Virus record (IMG/VR): IMGVR_UViG_3300038528_000009
Span: 1 to 34,976 of that record
Strand: one strand, 5' to 3'
Length of the DNA stretch: 34,976 bases
Source: a virus
In this document: in pieces, positions 187 through 34,976 of the stretch
Layout: every line of letters starts with the position of its first letter
How positions within the stretch are numbered: the first letter of the stretch is position 1
The notes under the pieces: generated by a model
The model's input: the letters and a program-made list of their open reading frames with translations, nothing else
The model's database searches: none
Told to the model about the DNA's origin: nothing
Translations under genes and position numbers: made by a program

Positions 187-1545
187 TTATCTAAGTTCAG
201 CCCATACATCAATATAAACAGAATTTATTGGATTAACTTTGTATACCGCTCCATTTGGCACAATTGCTGAAACTATAACGTTACTCTCGCTAGTGCTGTT
301 TCCGCTTACAAAATTCTCCACGACGCTCACCCCGTCCACAATCAACTTTAGGCCTATCGTGCTTGCGTTGCCGACGCTGAATACTGAAACGGATATAGGT
401 TTTCCGGTTGAATTTGTGTAGTTTGTACCAAATAGCCGACTATATTTTACATCTTGCCAAGTCTGCCCAACGCCAATTTCTCTTAAAGTCTGATCGCCGG
501 TATTCGTTCCGCTCAGGTTGGTGGCGGATATGTTCCCCGCAAACGTAGCTCCTGATAGATTTGCCTTGGCATTAAGAAGGCTGTCAACTTCCGTCTCGGT
601 GTAGGTTGTGGCTTGATCAGCTTTAGCGTCAAGAAGATTGTCAACTTCCGTCTCTGTGTAGGTCGTGGCTTGGTCGGCTTTGGCGTCAAGCAGCCCGTCA
701 ACTTCCGTCTCGGTGTAGGTTGTAGCTTGGTTTGCCTTGGTTGCTATGGCAGCTGTGTTGTTGCTTATGGCTTGTGCGCTATCCTCTATGCTTTGCGCGC
801 TATTTGCGGCGGCAGTTTCACTGTTACCGGCAGCAGTAGCACTGCCGGCAGAAGCAGTCTCACTGTTACCGGCAGCAGTAGCGCTGTTGCCAGCGGCGGT
901 GTCACTGGCAGCAGAAGCAGTAGCGCTATCCCTGGCGGCAGTAGCTGCAGCCTGTACGTCAGTCTCGTCGTTTACAACTGCTGCCAGCAAAGTGCCATTG
1001 GTGCACGACACGGCCAAAGTTATTTCGTTTTCTACAGCGTCGTAAGTGTAGTCGGTACCTAGAAACAGTCGGCCCCGGTCGTTACTTCCACCATTAAGGT
1101 AGAGCGCGGCACCTGCTATGTTTTTTGTAAACGCAACGACGGTCTGATTGGTAACCAGAGTTTTTGTTTCGACTACACCCCCGACGACGGCAGCATTAAC
1201 CAAGTTGAAAAACACCGAAGCGACTGTATCCCACACCTGCACTTGACCGTTAAAAACACGCAGTACGTCCACGCCGGCTACGGCTATACGAAGGTCACCG
1301 GCGGCTGCGCGGTATAGCCCTGACTGCGGCTCACCATTAAAAGTAAAACTTGGTGCCGATTTTACTCCTGTAATCCCTTTAAGTGGGGCGAGCATGGCGC
1401 CTTTTCCAGACCGCGAAAGGCTATCTTGTATGGCTGCAGATATGTCCGCTAAAGTGGGGTTTGCCCAGTCTACGGTGATAGACGTATCTGCCACCACCGG
1501 GTTACCTGTAGGAAGGCTGTAGTTGCCTGCTGCGTCGCGTGCCAT
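187..1545 (-). CDS. Tail fibre protein
   Basis: A 452-residue receptor-binding fibre candidate. The N-terminal part (about 1-110) carries phage fibre features such as SAPSFTFNGEPQSGLYRAAAG and the following VAGVDVLRV. Residues about 205-265 are an Ala/Ser/Asn/Thr-rich stretch with repeated TAAGNSETA-like units that would form a trimeric coiled shaft. Three 19-residue repeats with the core QATTYTETEVDxLLDA follow. The C-terminal part from about residue 345 (TWQDVKYSRLFGTNYTNSTG) resembles small fibre-tip domains that end phage fibres. ATG 1545 directly abuts a GTTTAAAC octamer, with AGAGGG just upstream. The gene lies last but one in the virion operon, before a chaperone-like gene. The receptor cannot be inferred. 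Confidence 0.85.
   Translation of the reverse strand: MARDAAGNYSLPTGNPVVADTSITVDWANPTLADISAAIQDSLSRSGKGAMLAPLKGITGVKSAPSFTFNGEPQSGLYRAAAGDLRIAVAGVDVLRVFNGQVQVWDTVASVFFNLVNAAVVGGVVETKTLVTNQTVVAFTKNIAGAALYLNGGSNDRGRLFLGTDYTYDAVENEITLAVSCTNGTLLAAVVNDETDVQAAATAARDSATASAASDTAAGNSATAAGNSETASAGSATAAGNSETAAANSAQSIEDSAQAISNNTAAIATKANQATTYTETEVDGLLDAKADQATTYTETEVDNLLDAKADQATTYTETEVDSLLNAKANLSGATFAGNISATNLSGTNTGDQTLREIGVGQTWQDVKYSRLFGTNYTNSTGKPISVSVFSVGNASTIGLKLIVDGVSVVENFVSGNSTSESNVIVSAIVPNGAVYKVNPINSVYIDVWAELR
570..740 (-). repeat. Three tandem 57-bp repeats in the tail fibre gene
   Basis: The segment GTCAACTTCCGTCT recurs at 583, 640 and 697, exactly 57 bases apart. Each unit encodes 19 residues with the core QATTYTETEVD. 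Unit number could change by slippage or recombination, which would lengthen or shorten the fibre shaft. Confidence 0.9.
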
Positions 1546-9020: not shown

Positions 9021-9761
9021 TTACCTCCCGAAGCCGCTGTCTGGAATATTACCCATACCCAAATAAGGGAAACTGTTTCTGTTTCCCGCGTTCAATATGG
9101 GCGCGCCTTTCTCGGTGCCGGTCAAAAATGTAAACGTCTGGTTAAAATCATCTTGCGCTTTTGTGCTGTCAAAACCAGACGCTTCAAGCATTTTCATTTT
9201 GAGATACCGGCTTATCAGCGTCCGGTTAAACAGTGGAATTTCATCGCCGGCAGTTACCGCATTTGCGTAAGTGAAATCAGGGTCGGCCGTGGCTGATCGC
9301 ACCCATTTATTCGACATGTACTCAAAGTTTATATCCAGCCCTATGGCCGGAGGCGAAGGGTACACCGAAAATTTACCTTCAATAAACCTGAACGCCACGT
9401 ACAAAGGATTAGCTGAAAAATCACGGCCCTTGAGGTACGCCCAATCGCTGGATGTTAAAGGCCCACCCAGAGGCACGCGCTGCGACCGCTCCCACCCCGT
9501 TTGATTAATCATGTACGCGAAGTCGTTGGGTAGCGCATAAGCCCCAGTGTCGCCGTCTACCGTGACAATACGGTGCTCTTTTAGCAGCTGCTCCCAAGGG
9601 TGCGCCTCTACCAGCTCTTCACCGGCAATGTTAAGCAAATACTGCATCTTTACAAACGAGGGGTTTTGACTGGCGTAGGGGTCCGCCACTGGCGTAACGC
9701 CTATCTCTGCCGCTACTCGGTTGAGAATATCGTTTGCAGAGGCAAGCGTCGTAATCGCCAT
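9021..9761 (-). CDS. Head-tail adaptor / tail tubular protein A-like
   Basis: A 246-residue protein. The N-terminal part has features of the gp11 (T7) / gp4 (P22) adaptor group: an initial helix (ANDILNRVAAEIGVTPV), then MQYLLNIAGEELVEAHPWEQLLKEH, a beta segment GAYALPNDFAYMINQTGWER, and a C-terminal helix LISRYLKMKMLEASGFD. These proteins form the ring between portal and tail hub after DNA packaging. It ends 3 bases before the hub gene, and its stop TAA lies inside a GTAAAC element. The assignment rests on pattern and gene order. Confidence 0.8.
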   Translation of the reverse strand: MAITTLASANDILNRVAAEIGVTPVADPYASQNPSFVKMQYLLNIAGEELVEAHPWEQLLKEHRIVTVDGDTGAYALPNDFAYMINQTGWERSQRVPLGGPLTSSDWAYLKGRDFSANPLYVAFRFIEGKFSVYPSPPAIGLDINFEYMSNKWVRSATADPDFTYANAVTAGDEIPLFNRTLISRYLKMKMLEASGFDSTKAQDDFNQTFTFLTGTEKGAPILNAGNRNSFPYLGMGNIPDSGFGR

Positions 9762-9765
9762 TTAA

Positions 9766-10419
9766 TTATTCCTCAGTAGGGGCTGGCCGGCGCGTTTTGC
9801 GAACGCGGGGTTCAGGTGCTACGGCTGCGGTATCGATGTCTGCGGGCGCATCGCTGGTTTTTCCGCCACGCATTTCCTGCATCATCTTCCGCATTTCAAC
9901 CATTTCTGACTCTTGATCCGCCAAGCGTGTTTCAAGCGCTTGCTTCTCGGTAATCAGTTTGTTTTTGTCTGCGTACTTCAAAAAGTCTTTGGCTTTTTCT
10001 TTCAGCCCCAGGCCGCCGCGAATATTTGCAGCGTCACCGTCAGACATTTGCACAAACTGTTCGACTGTTTTTACCTGCAAGAAAGACAGCTCTTCGGCCA
10101 TACTGCGGGAAATCTGGGGCCATTCCGCCAAGGGCGTGCCTTCTGTCGGGGCTTCTACTCTACGTTTAAACATATCGTAGTGGCGTGGGAACCGAGTTTT
10201 GTCGATGGCGGTCGCCGGGCGGCACACCAAAGGGTCGCGTTTACCAGGTACGCGAATTTCAACGTATTCCCGGTCTTTATAGATTGGTCGTCCTGCTTCC
10301 TGTGACGCGGCGGTGTCTTCTTTTTCCCGCATGAAAAATTTAACCATTAAGGCGGCATCGGCTTCGGCTTCGCGGCCTTGAGCAAATTGTGTGTGATCGA
10401 AGTCTGCTGTTTGTACCAT
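9766..10419 (-). CDS. Conserved podophage structural protein with coiled coil
   Basis: A 217-residue acidic/basic protein. Residues about 45-75 (DREYVEIRVPGKRDPLVCRP then FPRHYDMFKRR) match a small protein widely found beside podophage capsid genes. Residues about 155-185 predict a coiled coil (ALETRLADQESEMVEMRKMM). The C-terminus is a Pro/Arg-rich tail. There is no enzyme motif. The leader carries AACGGCAGA at 10426-10434 (minus strand), a sequence also present before two other late genes. A capsid-associated or head-completion role is likely from position, but unproven. Confidence 0.6.
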   Translation of the reverse strand: MVQTADFDHTQFAQGREAEADAALMVKFFMREKEDTAASQEAGRPIYKDREYVEIRVPGKRDPLVCRPATAIDKTRFPRHYDMFKRRVEAPTEGTPLAEWPQISRSMAEELSFLQVKTVEQFVQMSDGDAANIRGGLGLKEKAKDFLKYADKNKLITEKQALETRLADQESEMVEMRKMMQEMRGGKTSDAPADIDTAAVAPEPRVRKTRRPAPTEE

Positions 10420-10462: not shown

Positions 10463-10858
10463 TTATTCTATAAGTGAAGGTACCCGTGTCAGGCCCAGTG
10501 CTGCGATGTGATCCTGTGCTGACTCTAGCCTGTCGCCCAGTATCACTGCAATGACCTCGGGTGTAGCTTTGCCACGGTTGATCTGCAATAGCGCCTGGGC
10601 CTTGGTGGCTGCGTTTAAATCGACGTTAGGCGCGTGTGCTGGGGCTTTTAGTTGCTGGCCTGCTATTTGCGCGAAAACTGGATTTGCGACTGTCGAGGCT
10701 ACCGAGTACAGGTTGCCATCGGCGTCTTGATACGATGCAGCGGTGAACGTGTGATTGTCTGCGCTGGATTCGCCGAGGCATAGGGCTAGTTGGTTGGCGT
10801 CGGGGATGTGGGCTGCTGGGGCGGCAATTGTAACTCTCTGCGTGTATTCCGTGCTCAT
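10463..10858 (-). CDS. Hypothetical protein, capsid-region
   Basis: A 131-residue protein starting MSTEYTQRVTIAAPAAHIPD. It is Ala-rich with several beta-like segments (DADGNLYSVASTVANPVFAQ) and a C-terminal helix. No motif identifies a function. It begins one base after the repeat-bearing head-fibre-like gene ends and lies before the structural protein at 9766. It is therefore co-transcribed with head genes and may be a minor virion component or a chaperone for the fibre-like protein. The 41-base gap after it holds only the leader of the next gene. Confidence 0.55.
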   Translation of the reverse strand: MSTEYTQRVTIAAPAAHIPDANQLALCLGESSADNHTFTAASYQDADGNLYSVASTVANPVFAQIAGQQLKAPAHAPNVDLNAATKAQALLQINRGKATPEVIAVILGDRLESAQDHIAALGLTRVPSLIE

Positions 10859-10859
10859 A

Positions 10860-12521
10860 CTAATAGCCTCCGGTTACTGTGACTGTCCAGCCGCGTGAGC
10901 GTAGGGTGTCGATAGCTGCCTCGCCGGTTGATGATGGGGCTGATCCGCCGGATTGGTCGAATTTTCTTGTGCCTGTTGTGATGCCGGAAGTTACTAAAGA
11001 GACTAATATTCCGTCTATGCTGGCTTCGTCTAATGCTGTTTCATTAAATGCTGCTTCAAAAGCTCCGGCCTTTACGTTGTCGAAAGCGTTGGCGGGGAAA
11101 CTTGTAAGCGATGAACATCGATTCCAAGTGCTGATAAAATTAGTACCGCTTGAAGTATCAATTAGTGGAAAACTAGTTAATGAAGTGCAATTACGCCATG
11201 CTGAACTAAAATTAGTACCACTAGATGTATCAATTAATGGAAAACTAGTTAATGAATTACAATTGTACCATGCTACGCTAAAATCAGTACCACTAGATGT
11301 ATCAATTAATGGAAAACTAGTTAATGAAGTACAACTTAACCATGCTACGCTAAAACTAGTACCACTAGATGTATCAATTAATGGAAAACTAGTTAATGAA
11401 TTACAACTATACCATGCTCGATCAAAACTAGTACCACTAGATGTATCAATTAATGGAAAACTAGTTAATGAATTACAATCACGCCATGCAGCACTAAAAT
11501 TAGTACCACTAGATGTATCAATTAATGGAAATTCAGTTAATGAATTACACTTGTACCATGCAGCATAAAAATCAGTACCACTAGATGTATCAATTAATGG
11601 AAAACTAGTTAATGAAGTACAATAATACCATGCTAAACTAAAACTAGTACCACTAGATGTATCAATTAATGGAAATTCAATAATTTCTGAACGATCTCTC
11701 CAATACTCACTAAAACTAGTAACCTCACTGTAATCAACTCCAGCACCATTACCCACAAAGTAACTCTCTGCGTCTGATTTTTCGCTTGCAGTCAATGCAT
11801 CGTCGCGGAACAACGCTCCAACAATAGCACCACCGGGGAAGTATTCTCCGCCCAGCTCATACGCCCCGGCAGGTATACTAATGCCATAGCTCGCAGTACC
11901 ATCATCCGTAGCAAGCACCATAGTTCCATTCCAACCGCCCGTAGGCACTGTGATAATCAGCGCGTCGTCTACTTTGTCCAGTGATAACCGGTCGGGTAGT
12001 GTGTTGTACGTGGGTCTTGCTGCCGAGGTGGTCTGTACAGCGGTGTGCTCGTTTCCGGACTGGTCAATCATTGCGCCGGCTGGGTCGCCGTCAGACGTTA
12101 CAGGCACAGTGCCTGCCGCGTCCTGAAAGAGTGCCTGCACGCCAAGAACTATTGGCATGGGGACGTAAAATGCCCCCTCTTCGCCTGCGCCAAAAAGTTG
12201 ATTTATGAGCGTCGGCAACACGCTTGAAAAATCTATCGCAATCCGCCCGGTTGATGTAAACGGAATAGAGCCGGACACGTAATCAAAAGACGTGGCCCCA
12301 CCCACGCAGAGGCGTCCATCTGATGTAAACGGCAGCCCTCCTGATATGTGATCTATCGCACCGGTTAACGACGCGGCTATACGCTGGTTTGCTGCGTACT
12401 TTAGGCCGCTGTGGGTATGTGTTATCGCGCTTGCGCTGTCGATGGCCAGAGCGCTGTCTTTGTATGGGCGACCGCCCGACATGTTTGTTATTTCTGAGGT
12501 TGAGTCATCAACTAATATCAT
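10860..12521 (-). CDS. Head-fibre-like protein with BspA/DUF285 leucine-rich repeats
   Basis: A 553-residue protein. The N-terminal 110 residues hold short repeated segments resembling SGGLPFTSDGRLCV, SGSIPFTSTGRIAI and SGGRPYKDSALAID, suggesting a small repeated beta module. A segment with QDAAGTVPVTSDGDPAGAMI follows, typical of phage minor structural proteins. Residues about 275-466 are eight 24-residue repeats with consensus SLTSFPLIDTSSGTxFxxAW, each ending in Cys. This pattern belongs to BspA-type or DUF285-type leucine-rich repeats. The C-terminal cap includes PANAFDNVKAGAFEAAFNET. It sits next to the capsid genes, so it may be an exposed head fibre or adhesion decoration. The repeat DNA is clearly AT-richer than its surroundings. 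Confidence 0.75.
   Translation of the reverse strand: MILVDDSTSEITNMSGGRPYKDSALAIDSASAITHTHSGLKYAANQRIAASLTGAIDHISGGLPFTSDGRLCVGGATSFDYVSGSIPFTSTGRIAIDFSSVLPTLINQLFGAGEEGAFYVPMPIVLGVQALFQDAAGTVPVTSDGDPAGAMIDQSGNEHTAVQTTSAARPTYNTLPDRLSLDKVDDALIITVPTGGWNGTMVLATDDGTASYGISIPAGAYELGGEYFPGGAIVGALFRDDALTASEKSDAESYFVGNGAGVDYSEVTSFSEYWRDRSEIIEFPLIDTSSGTSFSLAWYYCTSLTSFPLIDTSSGTDFYAAWYKCNSLTEFPLIDTSSGTNFSAAWRDCNSLTSFPLIDTSSGTSFDRAWYSCNSLTSFPLIDTSSGTSFSVAWLSCTSLTSFPLIDTSSGTDFSVAWYNCNSLTSFPLIDTSSGTNFSSAWRNCTSLTSFPLIDTSSGTNFISTWNRCSSLTSFPANAFDNVKAGAFEAAFNETALDEASIDGILVSLVTSGITTGTRKFDQSGGSAPSSTGEAAIDTLRSRGWTVTVTGGY
11122..11697 (-). repeat. Eight 72-bp tandem repeats encoding LRR units
   Basis: The marker GATGTATCAATTAATGG or close variants recurs every 72 bases, with the unit phase at 11149, 11221, 11293, 11365, 11437, 11509, 11581 and 11653. 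Units are nearly identical over the FPLIDTSSGT part and differ mainly in the codons for the AWxxC segment. The block is AT-rich compared with the neighbouring sequence. This pattern fits recent tandem duplication or gene conversion with selection on a few exposed positions. Confidence 0.95.
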
Positions 12522-12587: not shown

Positions 12588-12923
12588 TTATTCTGCTGTC
12601 CAGCCTGCCGCCAAACTGGCCAACGTGGCGTTGCCCTGAGAGGTCACGGTACCGTTGCCGTTGGCGTTGTTTGCCCCGATTTTAATGGGAGTGCCTGCGA
12701 TGCCAATGTGTTGGCTATCTTGAGGTGTGCGCCCAGCGCCGGCCTGATCCAACAGCGTAAACTGATCGAGTGTCCCCGCCACAGCGGTTACGCCTTCACC
12801 AATGCCGATACCGGGAGCACATGATGCTGCTGCGTTCGCGCCATTGGCAAAGCTGGCGGCGGGTACCTGCGAGCCTCGGGCACTGACCAGCGTGCCGTTA
12901 AGGTAGTAACTTGGGTTAGACAT
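12588..12923 (-). CDS. Small capsid-associated (decoration-like) protein
   Basis: I start this at ATG 12923 (MSNPSYYLNGTLV, 111 residues), preceded by AGGAGA at good spacing. The frame stays open to 12947, but the extra residues carry no ribosome site of their own. The protein is rich in Gly, Ala, Asn and Thr, with no long helices, suiting a small beta-rich capsid decoration or stabilising protein. It is the first gene after the major capsid protein, a usual place for decoration proteins. No specific family was recognised. Confidence 0.5.
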   Translation of the reverse strand: MSNPSYYLNGTLVSARGSQVPAASFANGANAAASCAPGIGIGEGVTAVAGTLDQFTLLDQAGAGRTPQDSQHIGIAGTPIKIGANNANGNGTVTSQGNATLASLAAGWTAE

Positions 12924-12980: not shown

Positions 12981-13973
12981 TTAGCCGTTGGCGTCGTATC
13001 GGCCTTGGAATTGGCGGCCTGATACAGTCAGATTGCCCGCCCAGGCCATGATCTGAACTTCAGCGTCCTGGTTAGTGGCATAGCGGCGATTAGGTGACAG
13101 AGGCACCATGTTACGGTCCGCGTGAGGGCGGTAGCATAGGTACTTGGTGTTCAAAAAGAACGCCGTACCGGCCGGCGCGCCGCCGTTACTGCCGTTGTTA
13201 ATGCCGCCATCAAGCACAACGTCGGAATCCATAAACTTCAGGGTTGCAAAACCAGCGTCGGCGGATTGAGTGTTTGTAAAGCGTTGCTGCGCCTGCAGCG
13301 AACCCATGTAGGCGTTCCATACCGAAGTATCCGCCATAATCAGGTCTGGCCGATCCATGCCGCGAACCAATGAGGCCCACAACAAGTTCCAGAAACCTTG
13401 TATTTTAGTGGAGTCCAGGCCGTTTGCCGCAGTCTGATCGGATACGCCGTTACGCCAAAACGAGAACGTGCCGCCGTCAATACCGCCGTAGGGTGCCGCC
13501 GTAGGATCGACAGGCAGTGCAGCATCCAAGCCGTCGATCTGCTTGCCGCCGGCTGCTGTGCCGTCAGAATACAGACCCGCACAAATCAAGTTGGTCATGG
13601 TCGCTTCGGCCACTTCCAAACGTGATTCCATAAGGTCGATCATGCGCTCTCGGCCAGAGTTTTGCAGCTGCTCAAGACCGGAGATGACCACCGGAACGGC
13701 GGCTTGCTTAATGTCGTACTCTGCTGCGCTCAATACGTCAGACACACCGACCGGCAACAGATCGTACCCAGAGTACCAACCAGCGTTGCTGTTTTCTGCA
13801 AAAGACAATTCTTGCAGAATTTTGGTGCCGCCACTAAAGGTTTTGATCTTGCCGTTTTTCTTTAAACGGTCCAGAAGAGCGTTGTTGTTCGTTACGTTAT
13901 CAGCGATCTGCTTGGTACGACTGGCAATGGTCGTAGCCATAATATCGCTGATGGAAGTGTTGGCAAAAGCCAT
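12981..13973 (-). CDS. Major capsid protein
   Basis: A 330-residue protein with the layout of a podophage coat protein: an N-terminal helix (SISDIMATTIASRTKQIADN), KKNGKIKTFSGGTKILQEL, an AEYDIKQAAVPVVISGLEQL spine-helix region, and a C-terminal beta segment ending MAWAGNLTVSGRQFQGRYDA. It likely adopts the HK97 fold, as all tailed phage coats known to me do. It follows scaffold in the operon after a 172-base gap, has GGAG 8-11 bases upstream of its ATG, and is followed by a GC hairpin, all consistent with strong expression. No decoration insertion or cleaved prodomain is obvious. Confidence 0.9.
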   Translation of the reverse strand: MAFANTSISDIMATTIASRTKQIADNVTNNNALLDRLKKNGKIKTFSGGTKILQELSFAENSNAGWYSGYDLLPVGVSDVLSAAEYDIKQAAVPVVISGLEQLQNSGRERMIDLMESRLEVAEATMTNLICAGLYSDGTAAGGKQIDGLDAALPVDPTAAPYGGIDGGTFSFWRNGVSDQTAANGLDSTKIQGFWNLLWASLVRGMDRPDLIMADTSVWNAYMGSLQAQQRFTNTQSADAGFATLKFMDSDVVLDGGINNGSNGGAPAGTAFFLNTKYLCYRPHADRNMVPLSPNRRYATNQDAEVQIMAWAGNLTVSGRQFQGRYDANG

Positions 13974-34667: not shown

Positions 34668-34976
34668 ATGATCGATACTACAGTAAAAGATTTTGTAGCC
34701 TGGATAGCCGCCAGCACGAAATACCGGTTCGCATCGCCCCGCACGCAAAAAGTGCTGTACGCCGGCTTTGAGGCTGGACGCGCCGAGGTTGATAGACTGA
34801 AGGCGCAGGTCGCTGATATGCACGCAGCCTCGAATTTTGCGGGGATGTTTCAGGATGCCGAGGGAACTATCCCAGTTACGAAAGAGGGCGACTCGGTCGG
34901 GCTTTACATAAGCCCGGTTGCTAAAATTTATGAGGAGGCCGCGTGCTGGTGGGACCCCGGAGACATATCTACTCTA
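34668..34976 (+). CDS. Hypothetical protein, partial
   Basis: Starts at ATG 34668 and runs off the right edge with 103 residues present. It begins MIDTTVKDFVAWIAASTKYR. It has LYAGFEAGRAEVDRLKAQVA (coiled coil) and YISPVAKIYEEAACWWDPGD. No family was recognised. The leader GAGAGAAACAACC contains no strong Shine-Dalgarno site but resembles that before the primase-helicase. Confidence 0.6.
   Translation, partial: MIDTTVKDFVAWIAASTKYRFASPRTQKVLYAGFEAGRAEVDRLKAQVADMHAASNFAGMFQDAEGTIPVTKEGDSVGLYISPVAKIYEEAACWWDPGDISTL

What the first reader, a model, noticed from the sequence alone, without database searches (positions are those of the whole stretch)
10860..12521. Leucine-rich-repeat head-fibre-like protein with variable AWxxC positions
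Eight near-identical 24-residue repeats vary almost only at residues after GT and around AW (AWYYC, AWYKC, AWRDC, AWYSC, AWLSC, AWYNC, AWRNC, TWNRC). The DNA is AT-rich and repeats at 72 bp. This looks like an imported, recombining array that exposes a changeable surface on the capsid, possibly for attachment to host, mucus or particles. No reverse transcriptase is visible, so any diversity would come from recombination.
Basis: partly seen in the sequence, partly recalled or inferred. Interest (0 to 1): 0.7.

Follow-up and report, generated by a model that had tools for sequence, protein, structure and literature searches.

The report
Phage fibre with swappable variable repeats
A marine-type bacterial virus carries a surface-fibre gene whose tip is a chain of eight repeats that share the same scaffold and differ at six exposed positions; the tip and a small partner gene have moved between unrelated viruses, which looks like a modular way of changing what the virus sticks to.

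Summary
ORF 12521..10860(-), 553 aa, holds eight 24-aa (72-bp) repeats at residues 283-474. Variation sits in unit codons 11, 13, 14, 17, 18 and 20. In units 1-7 and relative L010 these differ at 0.50 changes per nonsynonymous site, against 0.011 per synonymous framework site. The pattern holds in 592 non-redundant units from 106 arrays. The repeats are divergent BspA/PARCEL-type leucine-rich repeats; an exact framework pattern hits at least 120 viral stretches but one contig among 84,980 prokaryote species. The protein is a chimera: residues 1-107 belong to a domain family found in 15 of 81 contigs fetched as capsid relatives; the rest, with the next 131-aa gene, is an imported two-gene cassette, absent from the closest relatives and carried by podo-, myo- and siphovirus-like contigs. 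I read it as an exchangeable adhesin. Head-spike mounting is supported in relatives (spike-base neighbour, Carin-1 synteny, RcGTA-like N-terminus) but not shown for the window. Reverse transcriptase is absent from 40 records and adenine-specific mutagenesis does not fit. Unit gain and loss, mosaic units and diversifying selection are the likely source of variety. Ligand and virion presence are untested.

The parts
10860..12521 (-). Gene for the 553-aa chimeric surface fibre with the leucine-rich-repeat array
12201..12521 (-). Residues 1-107: N-terminal anchor-like domain with degenerate GGLPFTxxGRL repeats; HMM hits in 15 of 81 contigs fetched through the capsid and anchor searches, on proteins of 86-577 aa, and in none of the other LRR loci
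11676..12200 (-). Residues 108-282: linker domain shared with Cobetia phage Carin-1 gp39 and the other array genes
11100..11675 (-). Residues 283-474: array of eight 24-aa units, variable codons 11, 13, 14, 17, 18, 20 of each unit, frozen framework
10860..11099 (-). Residues 475-553 and stop: conserved C-terminal domain (FPANAFDN...GWTVTVTGGY)
10463..10858 (-). Partner gene, 131 aa, present in 70 of 145 array loci; homolog of Carin-1 gp38; no solved fold match
12588..12923 (-). p119 family gene directly before the fibre gene, conserved in capsid relatives; possible decoration or base protein by position only
12981..13973 (-). Major capsid protein (NF033394, phrog_9953)
9766..10419 (-). p217 gene, the far border of the insertion: in close relatives it follows p119 directly
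9021..9761 (-). Tail adaptor-like gene (SU10_adaptor, phrog_6013 tail protein)

Best explanation
It is an exchangeable virion adhesin. A resident N-terminal domain (residues 1-107) holds the protein on the particle, probably on the head next to the capsid and p119 proteins; a linker carries a leucine-rich-repeat solenoid of eight units outward, and a conserved domain closes it. Each unit presents six variable residues on an invariant scaffold, so the array makes a large, easily changed binding face. The array part travels between phages together with the 131-aa partner gene. New variants arise by gain and loss of whole units, exchange between units and between phages through their shared framework DNA, point changes, and selection for new residues at the six positions. 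Shown: anatomy, chimera, cassette transfer, codon-restricted variation, unit gain and loss in relatives, absence of reverse transcriptase. Inferred: virion mounting, adhesion, ligand, and the exact recombination route.
For: Codon pattern: variable codons 0.499 nonsynonymous changes per site against 0.011 synonymous per framework site in window units 1-7 plus L010; 112 nearest-neighbour unit pairs give N/S 238/15 at variable and 85/130 at framework codons (Fisher 6e-40, pairs not independent). Framework DNA is the same as in L010, L037 and L041 (synonymous difference 0.008) although the flanks tested differ at 22-51% of same-residue codons. Import: in L172, L173 and L174 (capsid 89-92% identical) p119 is followed directly by p217, so two genes are extra in the window; L001 and L010 match the window DNA around this locus only over the gene tail and partner although L001 has a tail sheath. 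Anchor family found in 15 of 81 contigs with other C-termini. Turnover: L071 and L149 differ by a three-unit and a one-unit block with flanks 98.7-100% identical; L024 and L039 differ wholly with a 99.1% flank; cultured Nonlabens phages P12024S and P12024L are 98% identical up to the array and differ in it. Unit segments are nearly unlinked within arrays (mean r 0.02-0.12). Head link in relatives: spike-base gene directly before the array gene in L117 and in the head cluster of L034, and Carin-1 order base, gp39, gp38; RcGTA head fibres bind capsule (PMC7296036, PMC10218006).
Against: No virion proteomics or binding data exist for any member here. The window has no recognised spike-base gene and no LGLGL motif, so the head position rests on gene order. 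In other contigs the cassette sits near tail or lysis genes (L011, L020). Several contig groups have identical arrays, so turnover is not always fast. No two variants of the window's own population were compared. The mosaic statistic could partly reflect saturation rather than exchange.
Confidence: 0.66

Rival explanations
1. The array is diversified by a targeted mutator such as a diversity-generating retroelement acting on the variable codons.
For: Variation is confined to six codons with an otherwise frozen unit, and 258 of 452 variable-codon differences involve two or three bases.
Against: No RVT_1 in 40 records including the window. About 195 framework adenines in 15 AT-rich units are unchanged except four (counted by hand from the codon tables), and K, Q and E occur at variable sites, which an adenine-only mutator on AAY codons does not give. 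Eight separate targets in tandem would be unlike known cases. A reverse transcriptase encoded elsewhere (host or missing contig part) is not excluded.
Confidence: 0.05
2. The array is a tail or baseplate adhesin, not a head fibre; its place beside the capsid gene is only an insertion hotspot.
For: In L011 and L020 the cassette sits near endolysin or terminase and tail genes; S-CBWM1 annotates its homolog 'putative tail protein'; the anchor differs from phage to phage.
Against: In the window, S-SKS1, L003, L019, L034 and Carin-1 the gene lies among head genes; spike-base homologs adjoin it in L117 and, below the curated cut-off, L020.
Confidence: 0.3
3. The conserved framework and variable residues reflect neutral repeat turnover with no binding role; the array is a passive decoration.
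For: Repeat number varies widely and some arrays are nearly gone (L037 has one unit).
Against: The N/S contrast between variable and framework codons and the near-absolute conservation of S7, W16, C19 and L22 across 592 units need selection for fold and for difference.
Confidence: 0.07

Closest known systems
BspA / PARCEL-type leucine-rich repeats (LRR_5, TIGR02167, DUF285)
   Same: Tandem 23-26-aa leucine-rich units with variable hydrophilic and fixed hydrophobic positions; window array matches plasmid-borne BspA proteins at 33% identity, E 2e-10; one relative reaches LRR_5 at 2.8e-8 and nine of 19 weakly hit TIGR02167
   Different: Window itself reaches no curated model; virus-centred motif FPLIDTSxGTxFxxAWxxC; no palindromic DNA; part of a phage fibre with a partner gene
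Head spikes of RcGTA (Rcc01079 base, Rcc01080 fibre) and of Cobetia phage Carin-1 (gp40, gp39)
   Same: Carin-1 gp39 shares the linker and gp38 the partner; same gene order after the capsid; some array proteins have the hydrophobic-glycine N-terminus and a neighbouring base gene
   Different: The Carin-1 fibre gp39 carries no repeat array; the window lacks a recognised base gene and the motif
Variable lymphocyte receptors of jawless fish
   Same: Modular leucine-rich units on a fixed frame with variable surface residues (analogy; weak Foldseek matches 2o6q and 3rfj)
   Different: Variable positions here lie outside the predicted beta strand; no cassette-assembly locus seen; no claim of common origin
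Diversity-generating retroelements of phages
   Same: Phage surface protein with codon-restricted variation
   Different: No reverse transcriptase, no adenine bias, tandem repeats instead of one variable region
Variable leucine-rich-like protein of Vibrio mediterranei phage P. lipares (PMC10945359)
   Same: Authors report a two-ORF insertion whose LRR-like product is the most variable protein between isolates with different host susceptibility
   Different: The tblastn hit to its genome PP179307 is antisense to a real ORF, so no homology is shown

Membership tests
BspA/PARCEL leucine-rich repeats | Match to a curated family model (LRR_5, DUF285 or TIGR02167) | tested here: inconclusive
   Window: none. 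Relatives: LRR_5 in 3 of 19, best 2.8e-8; TIGR02167 in 9 of 19, best 0.0026
BspA/PARCEL leucine-rich repeats | Solenoid of leucine-rich units with one short strand per unit | tested here: met
   AlphaFold: strand at unit positions 3-5 in each of eight units; Foldseek LRR matches
BspA/PARCEL leucine-rich repeats | Palindromic coding DNA (PARCEL definition, PMC2996958) | tested here: not met
   Best dyad score 10; synonymous shuffles reach 12, base shuffles 13; no inverted repeats
RcGTA/Carin-1 type head spike fibre | Spike-base gene (NF048002) in the same virus | tested here: not met
   None in the window; present in L117, L034 and Carin-1, sub-threshold in L020 and L126
RcGTA/Carin-1 type head spike fibre | N-terminal hydrophobic-glycine star motif | tested here: not met
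   Window starts MILVDDSTSEI; motif in 5 of 64 array proteins against 5 of 807 other ORFs, one of which is Carin-1 gp39
RcGTA/Carin-1 type head spike fibre | Gene position between capsid and connector genes with the gp38-type partner | tested here: met
   Carin-1 order and 61% identical partner
RcGTA/Carin-1 type head spike fibre | Protein present on the virion head | not testable with these tools
   Needs proteomics or cryo-EM
Diversity-generating retroelement target | Reverse transcriptase in the same genome | tested here: not met
   No RVT_1 in 40 records; controls ring
Diversity-generating retroelement target | Adenine-specific substitutions | tested here: not met
   Framework adenines invariant apart from four of about 195; K, Q, E at variable sites

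The most novel reading that the evidence does not exclude
Phages hold a shared, virus-specific pool of leucine-rich units whose identical framework DNA serves as the crossover site of a dedicated unit-shuffling process, giving a phage counterpart of a combinatorial receptor repertoire that moves between unrelated phages.
Probability: 0.15. Interest if true: 0.85.

Novelty: new variant of a known kind. Interest (0 to 1): 0.6.

Why it matters
Phage adhesins usually change by domain swaps, point mutation or retroelement mutagenesis. Here one small scaffold, found almost only in viral contigs under the pattern searched, is re-used hundreds of times with changes at six fixed positions, and the unit with its partner moves as a cassette between podo-, myo- and siphovirus-like genomes. 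If it binds host surfaces, the repeat order would be a readable host-recognition code, and sister phages such as P12024S and P12024L make that directly testable. It would also give a protein scaffold with natural variable sites, much as jawless-fish receptors have.

Tried and rejected
Pfam and NCBIfam scans of the window protein gave nothing. The 131-aa partner has no Pfam, NCBIfam or PHROG hit and no solved fold match. Palindromic DNA as in PARCELs was tested and not found. A genome-collection search with the family alignment found no relative. Reverse transcriptase was sought in 40 records without success. The Vibrio phage PP179307 hit, attractive because its LRR-like protein is reported as the most variable one, proved antisense to a real ORF with 21-aa repeats and was dropped. 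The Carin-1 structure paper is not in the library; its base protein is known here only from the record annotation and PDB entry 8cjz, and what that paper says about capsid spikes I know only from memory. Contig ends inside arrays were not used as evidence, since repeats break assemblies by themselves.

Full report
Observation. The ORF at 12521..10860 (-) encodes 553 aa and carries eight 24-residue units at residues 283-474, period 72 bp. The array has 31% GC and GC3 0.09; the two flanks of the same gene have GC3 0.50 and 0.46. The unit reads FPLIDTSSGTxFxxAWxxCxSLTS. In units 1-7 the framework codons are the same DNA letters throughout except one TGC and one GAA codon, while positions 11, 13, 14, 17, 18 and 20 differ.

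What the repeats are. AlphaFold gives a regular solenoid with one strand per unit at positions 3-5 and pLDDT about 80-93 across most of the array; residues 1-175 are not modelled with confidence. Foldseek returns leucine-rich-repeat proteins, with low TM-scores. Sequence searches place the array near BspA-type surface proteins: 33% identity over 99% at E 2e-10 on a plasmid, LRR_5 at 2.8e-8 in one relative, TIGR02167 weakly in nine of 19. The window protein alone reaches no curated model, and the palindromic DNA that defines PARCELs (PMC2996958) is not there. I call it a divergent repeat of the BspA/PARCEL kind, with one defining DNA feature missing.

A large virus-centred family. Fifty viral loci came back from the first scan. 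An exact framework pattern hit at least 120 viral stretches, where the scan stopped at its limit, but one contig among 84,980 prokaryote species genomes; the two collections differ in size and make-up, so this is a strong leaning, not a rate. After removing near-duplicates there are 106 arrays and 592 units. S7 is invariant, W16, C19, L22, T6 and F1 nearly so, and the six variable columns have entropies of 2.3-3.6 bits. Arrays range from one unit to 24 in a row, and L003 has two arrays, 18 and 10 units, in one protein.

Chimera and cassette. DNA similarity between the window and L010 or L001 is confined to the gene from about residue 108 on and the next gene, apart from a tail-fibre stretch shared with another part of the L001 contig. 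L001 has a tail sheath and a different capsid family; L003 and L019 look like siphoviruses. In L172, L173 and L174, whose capsid proteins are 89-92% identical to the window's, p119 is followed directly by p217: the fibre gene and the 131-aa gene are extra in the window. Fifteen of 81 contigs fetched through the capsid and anchor searches carry a domain homologous to residues 1-107, on proteins of 86-577 aa with other C-termini, and none of the other array loci has it. The simplest account is a resident anchor onto which an array cassette with its partner was fused. The partner is present in 70 of 145 array loci and, among 50,697 phage records, only in Carin-1.

How the variety arises. In window units 1-7 plus L010 the variable codons differ by 0.499 per nonsynonymous site and the framework by 0.011 per synonymous site. 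The same framework DNA recurs in L037 and L041 although the flanks tested differ at 39-51% of same-residue codons. Across arrays, nearest unit pairs show N/S of 238/15 at variable and 85/130 at framework codons. L071 and L149, with flanks 98.7-100% identical, differ by a three-unit block and a one-unit block; L024 and L039 share a 99.1% flank and no unit; L097 and L132 share only the last two units beside an identical flank. P12024S and P12024L, cultured on one host, are 98% identical up to the array and then differ. Distances in different parts of a unit are almost uncorrelated within arrays, and left or right variable triplets are shared between arrays more often than expected while codons 11 and 17 are not linked. 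Against this, several contig groups, for example L020, L021, L022, L023 and L035, have identical arrays. I conclude that whole-unit gain and loss, exchange through the shared framework and diversifying selection together make the pattern. Reverse transcriptase is absent from 40 records, and framework adenines hardly vary, so a classical retroelement does not explain it.

Where it sits on the particle. In Carin-1 the capsid gene is followed by the cement protein, a 29-aa ORF, spike-base gp40, gp39 and gp38; gp39 shares the linker of the window protein and gp38 is 61% identical to the partner. gp40 matches the curated spike-base family NF048002, as do a gene directly before the array gene in L117 and one in the head cluster of L034; the gene before it in L020 is just below the cut-off. 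In RcGTA, residues 2-10 of the head fibre, a run of leucines and glycines, bind the base pentamer, and the fibre binds capsule (PMC7296036, PMC10218006). Such a motif begins five of 64 array proteins against five of 807 other ORFs. The window has neither the motif nor a recognised base gene, so for this phage the head position is an inference from gene order.

Verdict. A real, modular, hypervariable repeat fibre built on a bacterial-type scaffold, most likely a virion adhesin. Function, ligand and location need experiments.

Noticed in passing
window 449-740: The window's tail-fibre gene shares 88% DNA identity with L058, part of the contig that also holds L001, so a second adhesin segment is shared between these otherwise unrelated phages.
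   Followed up: partly
window 34836-34976: An open frame at the window's right end repeats the linker motif (FQDAEGTIPVTKEGDSVG ... WWDPGDISTL), perhaps the start of a second, truncated gene of this type.
   Followed up: no
L001 8546-13700 and L018 1-5155: The two ends of contig IMGVR_UViG_3300037296_000035 match at 94.5% over 5.2 kb and one end lies inside the array, as if two variants of one population had been joined.
   Followed up: partly
L003 6771-10373: One 1200-aa protein carries two complete linker-array-cap cassettes in tandem, with 18 and 10 units.
   Followed up: partly
L117 9354-9620 and L034 4850-5101: Spike-base proteins of the RcGTA Rcc01079 family in phage contigs, beside or near array genes.
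   Followed up: yes
window 10879-11568 (+): A 229-aa open frame runs antisense through the array; it may follow from the codon make-up and has no other support.
   Followed up: no
L169: The only prokaryote-genome hit of the framework pattern, a Candidatus Kuenenia MAG contig with several short arrays; whether it is viral was not checked.
   Followed up: no
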